A DNA stretch of 64,000 bases from Halobellus rarus (lineage in GTDB: Archaea > Halobacteriota > Halobacteria > Halobacteriales > Haloferacaceae): contig NZ_JANHDI010000011.1 of assembly GCF_024494595.1 (NCBI RefSeq), positions 1-64,000 on the forward strand, given 5' to 3'. The position numbers and the translations under genes are program-made. The notes under the pieces were generated by a model, which ran no database searches, had not been told where the DNA came from, and saw only the letters and a list, made by a program, of their open reading frames with translations. Of this stretch, positions 1,827 to 25,316 are shown piece by piece. Each line of letters opens with the position of its first letter. Position 1 is the first letter of the stretch.

Positions 1827-3065
1827 TCAAGACGCATACGTTCCAAGCGTCGCCTGCTGGGTTTCAGCATCGGCTTGGCTGTCTTGTGGCCCGGTCAACG
1901 AGGCCCCATCCTCAGCCGAGTCATCGTCGTTCTCGTGTTCTCTGGAACGACTCTCTCCGCTGAGGTAGCGATCTGCGATGTTGAGTGCGGCGTTGATGTC
2001 TGCCTGGTACTCTTCGATCCAACAGGCGTCGTTGGAGCACCTGAACGTCGCCTGTTGAGGCCGGGTTCCCCCCTCACCGCACATATGGCACTCTTGAGAG
2101 GTATTCCGCGGGTCGACTGTCACAATGGGGATCCCTCTTTCTACAGCTTTGTACGTGATCTGTGCGTGGAGTTTTGCGAATCCCCAGCCGTGAAGCCGGC
2201 GATTCATGTAGTCCCCGTAGTCCATCGACTCCTGGATGTAGGTGAGGTCCTCGAGCACGAGAACCGGCGTCTCGACTGACTCAGCGTACTCCACCACTTC
2301 CCTGGTGACGGTGTGGAGGATATCGTCGATTTGCGCCCACAACTCGTCGCCAAAGGTGTCTGCAATCCGTTCGCTCTCACGACTTTGGAGTCGCCGCATC
2401 GTGGTGAAGTAGCGCTTACGGAGTCGACGAACAGTCTTCCCTTCATCTGTCCAGAGTTCAGGGTTTGTCGGGGACCCATGCTCGTCGCGGTGACACACCG
2501 TGACGAGACTTGCTTCCCCGATATCGACGCCAATGGGGGTGCGTTCTTCGGCGGGAACATCGGAGTTGAGCGGGATGTCACGGGTCGCGATGAGATGGAA
2601 ATACCACGTTCCCTCCTGCTTGAGCAAGCGACCTTCCCCCACGTCTGCGTCGCCAGCAATCACTGCTTCAAGCCAATCCCGTTGCTCAGGGTTCGGCTGT
2701 GCTGGTACCCAGAGGTGGTAGTCTTCGTGGTGTGGGATCTTGACGTACCACTCGATCGTGTTTTCGGGCTTGTGGTCGATCTTCACCCCCTCGTTCGTGA
2801 AGCGGACAGGGTGATCGTCACTGAGTTCATTTGCCCCATAGGTCGTTGTTAGCTGCGGGACGTACCGCTTCAGGGCGTTCTTCGCGTAACTGCTCAGCTG
2901 GTAGTCACCCACGATTTCGTTCGTTTCTCCCAAGGTGGTACAATGGGCGTCGAAGGCCTCTTGGAGCGCCTGCTGGTAGGCCGCCCGCGTCTCGCGGAAC
3001 TTCTCCCGTTTGTGAGCGTTTGGGTCTACCAGCTTCAGTTCCAGCGTTTTTGTGAGTTCAGTCAC
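1827..3065 (-). CDS. tnpB: RNA-guided endonuclease TnpB (IS1341 type)
   Basis: A 412-aa protein with a GTG start. The N-terminal part is the helical RNA/DNA-binding region. The RuvC-like part has all three acidic positions: Asp in GVDIGEAS, Glu in LVLEDLTY and Asp in QADINAALN. A zinc ribbon (CHMCG, then CSNDAC) sits between the second and third. The length is normal. It should cut DNA with a guide RNA from the element's right end. The start overlaps a 24-codon ORF by 4 nt (GTGA). Complete catalytic residues suggest it is active, unlike the second TnpB in the window. Confidence 0.9.
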   Translation of the reverse strand: MTELTKTLELKLVDPNAHKREKFRETRAAYQQALQEAFDAHCTTLGETNEIVGDYQLSSYAKNALKRYVPQLTTTYGANELSDDHPVRFTNEGVKIDHKPENTIEWYVKIPHHEDYHLWVPAQPNPEQRDWLEAVIAGDADVGEGRLLKQEGTWYFHLIATRDIPLNSDVPAEERTPIGVDIGEASLVTVCHRDEHGSPTNPELWTDEGKTVRRLRKRYFTTMRRLQSRESERIADTFGDELWAQIDDILHTVTREVVEYAESVETPVLVLEDLTYIQESMDYGDYMNRRLHGWGFAKLHAQITYKAVERGIPIVTVDPRNTSQECHMCGEGGTRPQQATFRCSNDACWIEEYQADINAALNIADRYLSGESRSREHENDDDSAEDGASLTGPQDSQADAETQQATLGTYAS

Positions 3066-18767: not shown

Positions 18768-19901
18768 TTAGCGAATATCGGGCTGGAGCGGCGCGAATTC
18801 CTCCCATATCATATGGTGACGCTGACAGAGTGTGATCAGGTTTTCAAGCCGGTTCGACCGTTCGTAGTCCAGAACCCCGTTGGCGTCGATGAATGTGCCA
18901 AGCGGCGTAATGTGGTGGACGTTCAGGTCACGATCCCAGCGCTCGCGATGGGTCTCGCGGTCGATGGGACAGCCCGGCATCTGACACTCGAAGCCGTCCC
19001 GTTCCAGTGCGCGTTTGCGCTGTCTGTACCAGTTCGGTCCGTACGAAATGTCTCCGTAGCCGCCCTTCCAGAGCGGATGCTCTGGGCCGCTTGGACGTCC
19101 GGGATACTCGAACCCGGCCGCTTCGATGGCGTCTTGCCAAGTCCCATACCGGCGGGCATAGGATCCAACCGAGTAGCGACCAGAGTCACGTATCTCGATA
19201 GTTGATGGGACGTGGCCTAGCTCATCGACTAAGCGCTCGATCTCCTGATGGAGCTGTTCTTCACTGACACTCCATTGTTTGTGGGGTTCGAACCCTGCAC
19301 GGCGTAACGCACGATTCCAGCGGCCGAAGCATCGCTGGGCGACTTTCACCGACCACGCTCCGTGCTGTTCCATCTCTTGGGCCTTCGGTGGTCGTCCGAG
19401 GTCTGCGGCGAGGTTCTGAATCGCCTCGATGACATCCTCCTTTGTGGCGGTCTGCTGCGTGGTCGTCTCTAAGTCAGCTGCCCTGAGACCCTCGTTCCAC
19501 GACCCGAAATGAGTCTGGACTGCGTTGGCTGAGATACGCCCCAATTCTCGCCACTCATTTCGTGAGGGCGAATGGCCGATCTGGCTGGCGACTCGTTGTA
19601 GCTCCTCGATGATTTCTGCGTCGCTATATCCGTTTGTTCGAGGGTCAAGTCCGGCAGCCTCCAATCCCTGGTCCCAGCTCCCAAACGTTGAGCGCACTGC
19701 GCCTTTTGTGAATTCAGTCTCTTCTTCGATCTCCGATTGTTTTGGAACTCGACCTTTCTCTTCGGCTAGTCGCTGCAGTTCGTCGATGATCGTTTCAGCA
19801 GGAATCGATACCTGATGGGCACGCACATGGCCGGCAATCTCGACGTTAGTTTCGAACGATTCTCCGCAGATATCGCACGTGTAGTCTCCTTCGACTTTCA
19901 T
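18768..19901 (-). CDS. HNH endonuclease with four homing-endonuclease-associated repeats
   Basis: I chose the ATG at 19901 (MKVEGDYTCDICG), giving 377 aa. It starts with a C2H2 finger (CDIC...HVRAH). Four repeats of about 55 residues follow, each with a GxxPxxxE core and ending xFGxWxxxLxxAG-like (FGSWDQGLEAAG, FGSWNEGLRAAD, FGRWNRALRRAG, YGTWQDAIEAAG). The last 90 residues form an HNH domain (CQMPGC, VHHITPL, LITLCQRHHMIW). The repeats are the DNA-reading part of homing-type nucleases. It lies between the P block and the zinc-finger gene, so it may have inserted there. Confidence 0.85.
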   Translation of the reverse strand: MKVEGDYTCDICGESFETNVEIAGHVRAHQVSIPAETIIDELQRLAEEKGRVPKQSEIEEETEFTKGAVRSTFGSWDQGLEAAGLDPRTNGYSDAEIIEELQRVASQIGHSPSRNEWRELGRISANAVQTHFGSWNEGLRAADLETTTQQTATKEDVIEAIQNLAADLGRPPKAQEMEQHGAWSVKVAQRCFGRWNRALRRAGFEPHKQWSVSEEQLHQEIERLVDELGHVPSTIEIRDSGRYSVGSYARRYGTWQDAIEAAGFEYPGRPSGPEHPLWKGGYGDISYGPNWYRQRKRALERDGFECQMPGCPIDRETHRERWDRDLNVHHITPLGTFIDANGVLDYERSNRLENLITLCQRHHMIWEEFAPLQPDIR

Positions 19902-19922
19902 GCGTAGCTCCGAGCGTTGGCA

Positions 19923-19953
19923 CGCCCGCACCCCTCGTGGGGTCGGAGAAACA
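19923..19953 (-). promoter_or_regulatory. shared leader element, copy before the HNH gene
   Basis: Minus direction: TGTTTCTC (19953-19946), then CCCC/GGGG pairing (19931-19934 with 19939-19942) within a longer GC-rich arm. The ATG is at 19901. It closely resembles the copies at 3172 and 29212. Confidence 0.6.
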
Positions 19954-21097: not shown

Positions 21098-21114
21098 GAC
21101 CGACAGAACCATCT

Positions 21115-21170
21115 GCGCGCTCTCGCTCGCGCCTTCGCGAGCGCCCTACCGGGCGCGAGCGAGAGCGCGC
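21115..21170. repeat. perfect 19-bp inverted repeat, candidate origin or transfer site
   Basis: The arms at 21115-21133 and 21152-21170 are exact reverse complements, 19 bp of GCGCGCTCTCGCTCGCGCC, with an 18-bp spacer. This is the longest perfect hairpin found in the window. It is just upstream of the RPA-like gene in DNA without coding potential. A role as replication or transfer origin fits the neighbour; a strong transcription terminator is the main alternative. Confidence 0.6.
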
Positions 21171-21233
21171 CTGCATGAGGTGGCCCCAACCAGCACCGCG
21201 CGCCGACCCGCCCGGAGCGAGCGACCAGCGGAG

Positions 21234-21428: not shown

Positions 21429-21562
21429 AGAGAGACTAATGCCGGCTCAATAAACCGCAGCTGAGTCGTTCGGTCAACTGGTGAATTCAGGCGGCCAAAC
21501 AACGCCCAAGAAGAGCGGTACTGAATGCGCTAGCAGCTGGAAAAGCGAGCGACCAGCGGATC

Positions 21563-21641
21563 GACATCCACTCCGCGTTCACGGAGCGTCCGCTCGCTGG
21601 TGTCACGGTGACACCACGGCGGCACCTTGCGGGTCTGTGCG
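21563..21641 (-). ncRNA. right end and probable omega RNA scaffold of the second TnpB
   Basis: Past the tnpB stop on the minus strand there is a near-perfect hairpin GGTGTCAC-G-GTGACACC (21599-21615), then CTCCG/CGGAG (21571-21586), then TGGATGTCGA. This ending matches the other IS ends in the window (GGATGTC core). The guide would begin near 21562. Its first bases repeat as a 17-bp word, in opposite orientation on the plus strand, at both 21545-21561 and 21214-21230. Confidence 0.5.
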
Positions 21642-22883
21642 CTATTCGTTGAGAGCCACTGTGGCTTCCTCGACAGGGAACCACTGGTGGTCGTCCCACT
21701 GGAACCGCACGGGCCGTGCCGTCGGCCTGACGTCGGTGTTCGTCGCCTGTTCGAGCAACGTTCGCGACGCGACGAGGTCGGCGTGCCCCTCAAAGCCACA
21801 CGGACACCGCAGGGTCTCGCGATGTCGGCGCGTCCGCTCGCGTTCGCCACACTCCGGACACGTCTGGGAGGTCCACGCCTCGGAGAGTGAAGCCACCTCG
21901 ATGCCGTACTCCTCACAGACGTTCGCGAGCTGGTCGAGACACTGCCGATGCGCCCAGAAGGTACGCGCTTTGAGATTGGCCTCGACGGACCAGTACTCGC
22001 CGAGAACGCCGGTGAGATCGCCGTGGTAGATGGTTTCGACGCCGTCGTCGTGGAGTCGCTCGACCAGATCACGAAGGAGCGCGTTCACGGCGTGATCGCG
22101 CCGGCGGGACCGTTTCCGATAGAGCCGCTGAATTCGATTGCTGGTCTGCTGTCCATCCGGCAGCTTCGCTTTGGCGTCGGCGATGCGTTCGGTGGTTTCG
22201 CGGAACTGCCGAAACGGCTCCTGACCGCTGTACCAGTACTGTTGGCCCGCAGTCGTCGTACACGCCACGAGGACGTTCGCGCCGATATCGAGCGCGGCGA
22301 CGTCCGTCCCCGTCGGCGTCGCCTGTTCCGCCTCGGAGACGGTCACCGGCTGGTGGGCCCGATACGTCTCGTCGACGTCATCGTAGGTGAGGTGGAGGCG
22401 GCCCTGCTCGCCCTGCCAGTGCGGTTCACCGTGGACGGCAATCCGGAGCCGTTCGAACTGACCGAAGCCGTACTCGTCTTTGAGCTGGCTGCCGATGGGG
22501 ACCTCAAGCCGGGAGCACTCGCCCCAGCTGATCGTGTAGGCGTCGTTGCGGATGTAGGTCCGCAGGTCGCGCCCGTCGGCTTGGTTCCCCCAGTAGCCCG
22601 GCGGGCTGACCTCCTGGCCGGCCTCCTCAACCATTTCGAAGAACGACCGCCAAGCGGCGTCGTTGATGCGGGTGACCTGCTGGGTCGTCGCCGACCCCAA
22701 CACATCGACGTACTCGTCGTAGTAGCCATCACGGTCCCAGACGCTTTCGCCGGCGAAGAACCGCTGTCTGCGATCATACGTCAACTGGTTCCAGAGGCTC
22801 GCCGACGCATCGAGGAGGCGTCGCAGGACGATGTCTGCCTGCTCCGATTGTGGGACGACCTCGAAGGAGTTGGTTCGTCTCAT
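21642..22883 (-). CDS. tnpB: TnpB-like protein lacking the usual second catalytic residue
   Basis: ATG at 22883 (MRRTNSFEV), 413 aa. The RuvC-I Asp is in AALDIGANV, a zinc ribbon (CPEC...CPCG) is present, and the third Asp is in HADLVASRT. At RuvC-II, where the first TnpB has LEDL, this one reads IYHGDL: the Glu is replaced by Gly. Either the active site is rearranged, as in some TnpB groups, with another Glu (for example in VLGEYW) taking over, or the protein is nuclease-dead. The start overlaps a 58-aa gene by 4 nt (ATGA). It lies inside an island flanked by direct repeats. Confidence 0.85.
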
Positions 22884-23056
22884 CGCTCTGACCCACCCCA
22901 CATTCGCGGCACGTAGCCGAGGTGTTCGATGTCGTCCGCGTAGTCCCGAAGGAGTCCGATCAGGACGATTTCCGGAACACCGTTCTCGGACTGTTCGACT
23001 AGCCATTCCTCCAGTTCGACTTCGGCCTCTTCGATCTCATTCAGTTCAACCGCCAT
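22880..23056 (-). CDS. small acidic protein coupled to the second tnpB (58 aa)
   Basis: An ATG at 23056 opens [18 protein letters not shown] and ends in a TGA that overlaps the tnpB start (ATGA). The sequence is strongly acidic with one predicted amphipathic helix ([21 protein letters not shown]). The coupling shows that it is translated with tnpB. It may be an accessory factor or a translational leader. No family recognised. Confidence 0.6.
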
Positions 23057-23127
23057 CGGTCATCGTGCCTCTGTCTGTCGGTACACCTGTCGCTGGTGGG
23101 GGTATCGCATTTCGAATCACCTGTGAT

Positions 23128-23168
23128 GTGCAGGCACGACCGACCGCGCCTGCACCCTTTGCAGGCGC
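23128..23168 (+). promoter_or_regulatory. two mutually exclusive hairpins between tnpB unit and STAND gene
   Basis: GTGCAGGC (23128-23135) can pair with GCCTGCAC (23148-23155), or GCGCCTGCA (23146-23154) can pair with TGCAGGCGC (23160-23168); the two share bases and exclude each other. It could be the folded left end of the TnpB element or a switch-like structure. The likely STAND promoter (TATA at 23244) is downstream, so a left-end role is more probable. Confidence 0.4.
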
Positions 23169-23276: not shown

Positions 23277-25316
23277 ATGGTTCAGGTTCGGGACGAACAG
23301 CTCCAGCGTGCCGTCAGCAAGATTGTCGATGACGGGCGAGACATCCACATCTCCGGTGAACCCGGCATTGGCAAAACCGAATTCCTGGAACACGTTCAGA
23401 CCAGCCTCCCAGCAGAGTACACCATCGAAGAGACCACCGTTCGCATCCATCACGATATCCCAGATATAGAGCGTGACCTCCTGCATATCGCGCGTCGCGC
23501 TGCTGTAGAACGAGATTCGAAACCCAATCAGGTGACCAGCGCCTCTGGAAGCGCCTTCGGATTCTCTGGCGGGGCCACGGTCGACGACCGTGTTCGTGAT
23601 CTCTACAAATTGGAGGACTTGACCACAAACTGGTCGAGCGATCCCCTGGTGCTCTGCATCGATGACGTCCATAAGATTGCGGACGATGAGCAGACGGTTC
23701 GTGGGGTTGTTAGTGAGATTGCTGATGTGTTTGGTGATGAGATCCACCTCATTACGGTCGGCCAGATTTCCGCCATCAAAGGCGTCGAGGAACTCCACTT
23801 GAACCTGTACACGCTCAAAGAAACCAGGAAGTTTCTAGAGGCGGAGTACGGCGACATACCGGAGGGGACCATCAAGGAGGTGCATTCAAAGGTGGAAGGC
23901 CACCCGCTCTACCTGAGCTTGTTGACGGAGTCCACTGAGGATGCAGCGGATTTCGAGTTGCCTGAGGATGCTGTATTCGATACGATTGAGAAACGCTACA
24001 TTGAGTCTCTCCCTGCAGAAACAGAACAGTTCCTCCGGCAAGTGGCAGTGTTACCTGAACTGAGCGAACGAACCTGTAGCGGGATCATCGACGACCGTTC
24101 TGCAACGGAAATCGATCGGATGCTGAGACGGCTCAACCGCCAAGTGATCGTCCAAGAGGTGAACCGCAGTGATGCCGGCGATAAAATCTATAAAATCCAC
24201 GAGCGGTTTCGCAGGTTCCTGATACAGAAGCACCCGAATCCGACGCGCGATCATCGAACCGCCCTGGAGCACCATTTCGAGGAACTCCTGCAGAAAATCG
24301 GCGAGGAGTCGGATGAGACGTGGAAGGAGATTCTCCCACACTCCTTCCATCTCCGGTTCCATCTTACAAGTCTCCACGACGAGGTCACGCCAGAATATTT
24401 CCTCAAGGAACTCGACCAGTGTGGAATTACGTACCCGGAACGCGGCATACTGGTGTTCTTTGGCGGTGTGGGCGTGTTTCCAGCACGAGCGATCGAACTC
24501 TTTCAGACGGAACATGAGGCGTTCAGCGAGTGGCTACTGGAGAACGCAGAAAACGAACCCACGGCAAATCTCTTGGTGCAAATCACCGACTGGGCGCTGA
24601 GTCAGGTTGGGGATGATGACCCAATCGAGCTCTCTGAGGTCCGCGTGGAGGGGAGTATGGATGATCTCCCAATCGAGTCGCAGCCCTTCGATGAACTGGA
24701 CGTCAGTGAGGCGCAAGCCCGGCACTTGGAGAACTCGTTCAAGAATATTCTGAGCTACTTCTTGATTGAGGAGCCCTATCGGAGTAGTACCCACAGACGG
24801 CAAGCACACAAGCAAATTGAGTCCTACGGCATCTCATACGAGCTACTCTCTGAATTCCGGGCGGAAGTGAAACAGACACTTGTGGAGAGCCAGCTCGGGG
24901 ACGAGTTCGAATCGTTGGTCGAGCAGTATGTTGAGACGGTTGGCCAGGAGCTCGAGGGGAGCTTGACCAGTAGTCTGGATTTCCATAGCCTGCGAGACCA
25001 GATGATGGAGCTCGGGCGGCATACGTTCGATGATGTGCACGAGGATCTATTCGTCGACACAGGGGTGCTTGAGGAGATTACGATCAACGGCGGGGATGTT
25101 TTGGAGCGAGCTGAGAATCCGGCGTTCGCGATGTTATGGTATCATTTCTATATTGCTTATCTGGGCGAACAACCGTCGGCGGAGGTCCCCGAGGAGATTC
25201 GGGAACGGTGTCTTAGGATGGTGAAGGCGCGGAAAGCGTATGAGGCGGCTCTTGATAAGCCGATGTTCACAGCTGAGGATACTGAGGATTTACTGGCGCT
25301 TGATACTGAAGATTAG
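23277..25316 (+). CDS. STAND-type AAA ATPase, possible defence protein
   Basis: A 679-aa protein with an ATG start. A Walker A motif GEPGIGKTEF lies at residues 25-34. Walker B is LVLCIDDVHK near 125-134, followed by an LYTLKETRKFL / VEGHPLYLSLL region and a winged-helix-like part (RLNRQVIVQEV...KIYKIHERFRRFL). This is the layout of STAND NTPases. The last 300 residues are helical and match nothing I know. STAND ATPases are common in archaeal and bacterial antiviral systems. It sits in an island with a TnpB-like gene between two direct repeats, which supports a mobile cargo role. Confidence 0.7.
   Translation: MVQVRDEQLQRAVSKIVDDGRDIHISGEPGIGKTEFLEHVQTSLPAEYTIEETTVRIHHDIPDIERDLLHIARRAAVERDSKPNQVTSASGSAFGFSGGATVDDRVRDLYKLEDLTTNWSSDPLVLCIDDVHKIADDEQTVRGVVSEIADVFGDEIHLITVGQISAIKGVEELHLNLYTLKETRKFLEAEYGDIPEGTIKEVHSKVEGHPLYLSLLTESTEDAADFELPEDAVFDTIEKRYIESLPAETEQFLRQVAVLPELSERTCSGIIDDRSATEIDRMLRRLNRQVIVQEVNRSDAGDKIYKIHERFRRFLIQKHPNPTRDHRTALEHHFEELLQKIGEESDETWKEILPHSFHLRFHLTSLHDEVTPEYFLKELDQCGITYPERGILVFFGGVGVFPARAIELFQTEHEAFSEWLLENAENEPTANLLVQITDWALSQVGDDDPIELSEVRVEGSMDDLPIESQPFDELDVSEAQARHLENSFKNILSYFLIEEPYRSSTHRRQAHKQIESYGISYELLSEFRAEVKQTLVESQLGDEFESLVEQYVETVGQELEGSLTSSLDFHSLRDQMMELGRHTFDDVHEDLFVDTGVLEEITINGGDVLERAENPAFAMLWYHFYIAYLGEQPSAEVPEEIRERCLRMVKARKAYEAALDKPMFTAEDTEDLLALDTED

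What the first reader, a model, noticed from the sequence alone, without database searches (positions are those of the whole stretch)
21642..22883. TnpB-like protein with Gly in place of the RuvC-II Glu
The first TnpB here has LVLEDLTY; the second has TIYHGDLTG at the same place, while both Asp residues and the zinc ribbon remain. It may be a rearranged active site or a nuclease-dead RNA-guided binder like the TnpB-derived repressors known elsewhere. Its position beside a STAND gene and its coupled 58-aa partner make a regulatory role worth testing.
Basis: partly seen in the sequence, partly recalled or inferred. Interest (0 to 1): 0.65.

Follow-up and report, generated by a model that had tools for sequence, protein, structure and literature searches.

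The report
TnpB nuclease with relocated catalytic glutamate
This archaeal transposon protein looked like a dead RNA-guided nuclease because one catalytic acid is missing from its usual place, but the acid has moved to a second, strictly conserved position known from other TnpB and Fanzor enzymes, so it is most likely an ordinary working nuclease; the unusual part is a small, unstudied protein that travels with it.

Summary
The TnpB at 21642-22883 (-) has Gly288 (YHGDLTG) where the first TnpB in the window has Glu (LVLEDLTY), while D199, D369 and the zinc ribbon remain. The 'nuclease-dead' reading is not supported. Glu335 (SEAWTSQTC) lies exactly six residues before the first zinc-ribbon Cys, the published alternative Glu position (E-alt) of Fanzors and some TnpBs. 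Among the window protein and 80 named haloarchaeal relatives, Gly288 is 81/81 and Glu335 80/81; the one exception is a frameshifted copy. tnpB is under purifying selection (dN/dS 0.14; RuvC half 0.11). The gene lies in a 1,624-bp element (21545-23168) with conserved ends, covarying 3' hairpins typical of a TnpB guide RNA, and guide-position sequences that differ between copies. A STAND gene is next to none of 37 other loci. Forty of 80 relatives have a Y1 TnpA upstream of tnpB. In this clade a conserved 58-aa two-helix protein takes that place, and no TnpA is present. That TnpA-less, partner-coupled form is the only apparently new part. Cleavage itself was not testable here.

The parts
21545..23168 (-). 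whole mobile element (1,624 bp): left-end hairpin, 58-aa partner, tnpB, 3' guide-RNA scaffold, right end
   Evidence: BLAST of the whole 1,624-bp unit end to end at 86-91% identity to copies in other genomes, with different left flanks; same length in 9 of the 14 other copies where both ends were found
23146..23168 (-). left-end inverted repeat GCGCCTGCaaagGGTGCAGGCGC, preceded by a T-run (TTTTT) in nearly all copies
22880..23056 (-). 58-aa acidic two-helix partner protein; stop codon overlaps tnpB start (ATGA)
   Evidence: dN/dS 0.13; AF2 pLDDT 86, helices 3-24, 29-46, 51-54; no Pfam, NCBIfam, PHROG or PADLOC match
21642..22883 (-). TnpB, 413 aa (DIG RuvC-I, E-alt RuvC-II)
   Evidence: full TnpB/Cas12f fold
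22287..22289 (-). codon of D199, RuvC-I catalytic Asp (end of strand 194-199)
   Evidence: 80/81 conserved
22020..22022 (-). codon of G288, canonical RuvC-II Glu position
   Evidence: Gly in 81/81
   Evidence: Glu in 22/81 only; pLDDT<50 loop
21879..21881 (-). codon of E335, alternative catalytic Glu (E-x6-C)
   Evidence: Glu in 80/81, exception a frameshifted copy; GAG and GAA both used
21798..21860 (-). zinc ribbon C342-x2-C345 ... C360-x-C362
21777..21779 (-). codon of D369, RuvC-III catalytic Asp (helix N-terminus)
   Evidence: 81/81
21590..21622 (-). 3' hairpin 1 of the predicted guide-RNA (omegaRNA) scaffold
   Evidence: 98.8% of cells paired, two pairs with compensatory change
21569..21588 (-). 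3' hairpin 2 of the predicted scaffold, variable loop
   Evidence: 100% paired, one compensatory pair
21525..21544 (-). predicted guide position (TTTTCCAGCTGCTAGCGCAT), directly after the right end; exact first guide base not determined
   Evidence: no second site in the host genome

Best explanation
It is a catalytically competent TnpB with a rearranged RuvC active site (D199-E335-D369). The metal-binding Glu has moved from the end of one core strand (now Gly288) to the end of the next strand, just before the zinc ribbon, as in the D-hydrophobic-G / E-alt TnpB clade and in Fanzors. It is encoded in a 1.6-kb TnpA-less transposon of haloarchaeal plasmids together with a 58-aa partner. Shown: conservation, selection, fold, element ends, covarying 3' hairpins, different guide-position sequences. 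Inferred: TnpB binds the RNA made from its own 3' end and cleaves sites matching the flank 3' of the element beside a T-rich motif, so that an empty donor or sister site is cut and the element is copied back or retained. The 58-aa protein is inferred to be an accessory subunit or regulator of TnpB.
For: E335 is in 30/30, 34/35 (exception a degenerate copy) and 80/81 relatives, down to 38% identity, together with G288 in all. Spacing E-x6-C is exactly the published E-alt definition. dN/dS is 0.14 overall and 0.11 for residues 191-380, and codon 335 varies only synonymously. The AF2 model (pLDDT 81.9) puts D199, G288, E335 and D369 at strand or helix ends of the RuvC core, in blocks of pLDDT 81-89. 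Structure matches: Cas12f Z about 20, ISDra2 TnpB Z 16.9, mimivirus Fanzor2 Z 16.0. Half of the 80 relatives sit behind a Y1 TnpA, a normal transposon setting for the same active site.
Against: TnpA is absent from this clade and mobility in trans is unproven. No clean empty site was found. One recurrent flank class (TTTTCMAGCTGCTAGCGCTTTCAGTA) was always found next to the element (9/9), which would also fit a fixed, domesticated locus on one plasmid lineage. The Rfam haloarchaeal TnpB RNA families (sot) do not match here.
Confidence: 0.8

Rival explanations
1. Nuclease-dead, RNA-guided DNA binder (TldR-like) that represses genes, for example the neighbouring STAND gene, with the 58-aa protein as its domesticated partner.
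For: Canonical Glu lost; TnpA lost; a non-transposon gene coupled to the whole clade, as described for TldRs; one guide-position sequence recurs with few changes in several plasmids.
Against: Complete alternative triad conserved under strong purifying selection. At least eight unrelated guide-position sequences among about 30 copies. No second guide match in the host genome at 16 nt with up to 2, or 20 nt with up to 3, mismatches. STAND absent from 37 other loci. Element ends intact.
Confidence: 0.1
2. The substitute Glu is E296 in VLGEYW.
For: Close in sequence to the canonical site; present in this subclade.
Against: Glu in only 22/81 (Thr in 48); low-confidence loop 292-309.
Confidence: 0.02
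3. Decaying transposon gene in which the Glu was lost by drift.
For: Some relatives are frameshifted or fragmentary, and a broken relative exists elsewhere in this genome.
Against: Gly288 fixed in 81/81 and E335 in 80/81; dN/dS 0.14; intact ORF, partner and ends in this copy.
Confidence: 0.02
4. Active E-alt nuclease exapted by the plasmids as a retention or plasmid-competition system, the 58-aa protein being a regulator such as an antitoxin-like restraint; transposition no longer matters. (Shares the active-site claim with the best explanation, so the confidences overlap.)
For: No TnpA in the clade; several copies at one plasmid-backbone site with the flank always occupied; partner under purifying selection.
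Against: Different flanks and 72-94% identical copies in many genera imply continued movement.
Confidence: 0.25

Closest known systems
E-alt TnpB clade with D-hydrophobic-G RuvC-I motif (Yoon et al., NAR 2023, PMC10711439)
   Same: DIG at RuvC-I; Glu exactly six residues before the first zinc-ribbon Cys; no Glu at the canonical place; TnpB fold
   Different: Second zinc-ribbon half is C-x-C, so the published RegEx as written does not match this protein; TnpA replaced by a 58-aa partner in this clade
Fanzor / pro-Fanzor (PMC10711439, PMC10432273, PMC11423790)
   Same: Same relocated Glu; fold match to mimivirus Fanzor2 9b0l (Z 16.0; sequence profile E=1.1e-8)
   Different: DIG and not DPG; no IS607 resolvase; archaeal; no eukaryotic-type extensions
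Haloarchaeal IS200/IS605 elements with Y1 TnpA and TnpB (40 relatives here)
   Same: Same TnpB family at 55-61% identity with the same G288/E335 pattern; in many the upstream gene's stop also overlaps the tnpB start
   Different: This clade (19 rows, support 100) carries the 58-aa partner in that place and no TnpA
ISDra2 TnpB and Cas12f
   Same: Fold and domain order (Z 16.9 and about 20)
   Different: Canonical RuvC-II Glu there; Gly plus E-alt here
TldR nuclease-dead repressors (PMC13418256)
   Same: TnpB-derived, TnpA-less, coupled to a non-transposon gene
   Different: Active-site residues conserved here; varied guide-position sequences; intact ends

Membership tests
E-alt TnpB (D-hydrophobic-G) | RuvC-I D followed by a hydrophobic residue and G | tested here: met
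   DIG at 199-201
E-alt TnpB (D-hydrophobic-G) | Glu six residues before first zinc-finger Cys, conserved in relatives | tested here: met
   E335-x6-C342; 80/81
E-alt TnpB (D-hydrophobic-G) | No Glu at the canonical RuvC-II place | tested here: met
   Gly288 in 81/81
E-alt TnpB (D-hydrophobic-G) | CxxC ... CxxC zinc ribbon as written in the published search RegEx (a search-pattern detail, not a biological definition) | tested here: not met
   CxxC ... CxC here; strict RegEx gives no match, the relaxed one matches. Four Cys are conserved in 80/81
E-alt TnpB (D-hydrophobic-G) | TnpB/RuvC fold | tested here: met
E-alt TnpB (D-hydrophobic-G) | Guide RNA encoded at the 3' end of tnpB running into the flank | tested here: inconclusive
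   Conserved, covarying hairpins ending at the right end; transcript not seen; no Rfam match
E-alt TnpB (D-hydrophobic-G) | RNA-guided DNA cleavage | not testable with these tools
   needs biochemistry
Fanzor / pro-Fanzor | DPG motif at RuvC-I | tested here: not met
   DIG; hydrophobic residue (I, V or L) in nearly all relatives aligned
Fanzor / pro-Fanzor | E-alt | tested here: met
TldR | Loss of RuvC catalytic residues | tested here: not met
   D199, E335, D369 conserved
TldR | Guide retained for a fixed host target outside the locus | tested here: not met
   Guide-position sequences differ; no second site in the host genome
TldR | Stable association with a non-transposon gene | tested here: inconclusive
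   58-aa partner in the whole clade, but inside the mobile unit
IS200/IS605 transposon | Y1 (HUH) TnpA in the element | tested here: not met
   None in 21545-23168; present in 40 of 80 relatives
IS200/IS605 transposon | Hairpin ends and insertion beside a short fixed motif | tested here: inconclusive
   Left inverted repeat after a T-run and 3' hairpins; no clean empty site

The most novel reading that the evidence does not exclude
In this haloarchaeal lineage TnpA was lost and a 58-aa host-type two-helix protein became an obligatory, translationally coupled partner of an E-alt TnpB. The partner would modulate RNA binding or cleavage, so that the element persists on plasmids by guided cleavage alone.
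Probability: 0.2. Interest if true: 0.65.

Novelty: new variant of a known kind. Interest (0 to 1): 0.33.

Why it matters
It shows that absence of the usual RuvC-II Glu is not evidence for a dead nuclease: a check of the E-x6-C position should come before any TldR-like call. It adds a large archaeal set of E-alt TnpBs, half of them with a Y1 TnpA, useful for asking why Fanzor-type active sites evolved. The TnpA-less clade with a conserved small partner is a concrete, testable lead.

Tried and rejected
Rfam scan for the haloarchaeal sot guide RNAs: no match in this region. Partner protein against Pfam, NCBIfam, PHROGs and PADLOC: none. E296 as substitute Glu: rejected. STAND link: rejected, 0 of 37 loci. 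Flanks as a general inverted-repeat target: only one copy clearly above shuffles, so dropped. Empty-site search: a right-flank pattern gave 9 hits, all beside an element end; a left-flank pattern gave 7 hits, 6 beside the element and one (L218) without it, in which upstream similarity is short, so not counted as proof. The PNAS TnpB census is not in the paper library. The first extraction of relatives used wrong strands and was redone. The careful tree did not finish; the quick tree is used. Exact first guide base and TAM were not settled: TTTTC follows the right end in most copies and may belong to the element.

Full report
Observation. The protein at 21642-22883 (-) is a 413-aa TnpB. Its RuvC-II motif reads TIYHGDLTG, with Gly288 where the other TnpB of the window (1827-3065) has Glu in LVLEDLTY. 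D199, D369 and four zinc-ribbon Cys remain.

Where the Glu went. E335 in SEAWTSQTC lies exactly six residues before the first zinc-ribbon Cys. Yoon et al. (NAR 2023, PMC10711439) define this as the alternative Glu (E-alt) of Fanzors and of one clade of TnpBs, split by DPG versus D-hydrophobic-G at RuvC-I. The window protein is D-I-G plus E-alt. In three alignments G288 is invariant (30/30; 35/35; 81/81). E335 is 30/30, 34/35 and 80/81; the two departures are a degenerate copy (L095) and a frameshifted copy (L144).

Fold. AlphaFold2 on 35 sequences gives pLDDT 81.9. D199 ends strand 194-199, G288 is at the end of strand 282-289, E335 directly follows strand 329-334, and D369 starts helix 368-381. 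So the Glu has moved to the end of the next strand, as reported for E-alt models (PMC10711439). Matches cover the whole fold: Cas12f Z about 20, ISDra2 TnpB Z 16.9, mimivirus Fanzor2 Z 16.0.

Selection. Among 18 complete copies the median pairwise dN/dS is 0.14 for tnpB, 0.11 for residues 191-380 and 0.13 for the 58-aa gene; codon 335 is GAG or GAA but always Glu. This is the pattern of a used active site, not of decay.

Element. Copies in other genomes match the window end to end over 1,624 bp (21545-23168) at 86-91% and then diverge, always on the left and in many copies on the right. The left end is an inverted repeat preceded by a T-run. The right end closes a block of two hairpins with compensatory changes (99.2% of cells paired, slid controls at most 49%), the place and shape expected of a TnpB guide-RNA scaffold. 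What follows is different in different copies: at least eight unrelated sequences. The window's guide-position sequence has no second site in its own genome. Some copies in several genera share one plasmid-backbone right flank.

Neighbours. The STAND gene (23277-25316) has no homologue beside any of 37 other loci tested, which include the copies of this element, so its position is incidental. The 58-aa protein is not incidental. Of 80 relatives, 40 have a Y1 TnpA just upstream of tnpB, 20 have the 58-aa protein, 20 neither. The window's clade of 19 rows (support 100) carries the partner throughout (quick tree). The partner is a two-helix protein (pLDDT 86) with an invariant GY-x-PR-x-W tail. 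Its family also occurs away from TnpB (L083, L085-L088) and once in front of a TnpB with the canonical Glu (L082). No family library names it.

Mechanism. Shown: a complete D-E-D set, fold, selection, ends, RNA-like structure, varied guide-position sequences. Inferred from established TnpB biology: TnpB processes its own mRNA (PMC10278001 is the published case, not read in full here), binds the 3' RNA and cleaves matching sites next to the insertion motif, which favours retention or re-copying of the element. How it moves without TnpA is unknown; the genome has two Y1 TnpA genes, each followed by a TnpB with the canonical Glu, and mobilisation in trans is untested. The role of the 58-aa protein is a guess.

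Verdict. The rearranged-active-site alternative is right, with a different Glu from the one proposed; the dead-regulator alternative is not supported. The active-site type is known. What appears undescribed in the library searched is the TnpA-less haloarchaeal element with its coupled 58-aa partner.

Noticed in passing
1827-3065 (-): First TnpB of the window has the canonical Glu (LVLEDLTY) and no 58-aa partner upstream.
   Followed up: partly
own genome C25:145436-146686 (L105:1937-3178): Broken relative of the same E-alt TnpB; reading frame lost near the zinc ribbon.
   Followed up: partly
L207, L208 (own genome C22 and C23): Two Y1 TnpA genes, each followed by a TnpB with canonical Glu (VEDLNV): possible trans source of transposase.
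   Followed up: partly
L082-L088: The 58-aa partner family also occurs without this TnpB: before a canonical-Glu TnpB (L082), near TFB-type transcription factor genes (L083-L085) and before RAMP/CRISPR-like genes (L087, L088).
   Followed up: partly
21519-21544 and L209-L217: The 26-mer TTTTCMAGCTGCTAGCGCTTTCAGTA was found in 9 of 292 genomes, every time directly after the element's right end, even where the element is decayed; no empty site seen.
   Followed up: partly
L010, L012, L070, L071, L074, L128, L132, L218: A recurrent left flank (..CTGACTGCGTAGTGCGGTGGTG TTTTT) precedes several copies and exists once without the element (L218).
   Followed up: partly
21109-21173: Strong long inverted repeat (GCGCGCTCTCGCTCGCG ... 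CGCGAGCGAGAGCGCGC) upstream of an OB-fold gene on the right-flank side.
   Followed up: no
18768-19931 (-): Protein with four HNH_repeat homing-endonuclease repeats, a C2H2 finger and an HNH-like C-terminus.
   Followed up: no
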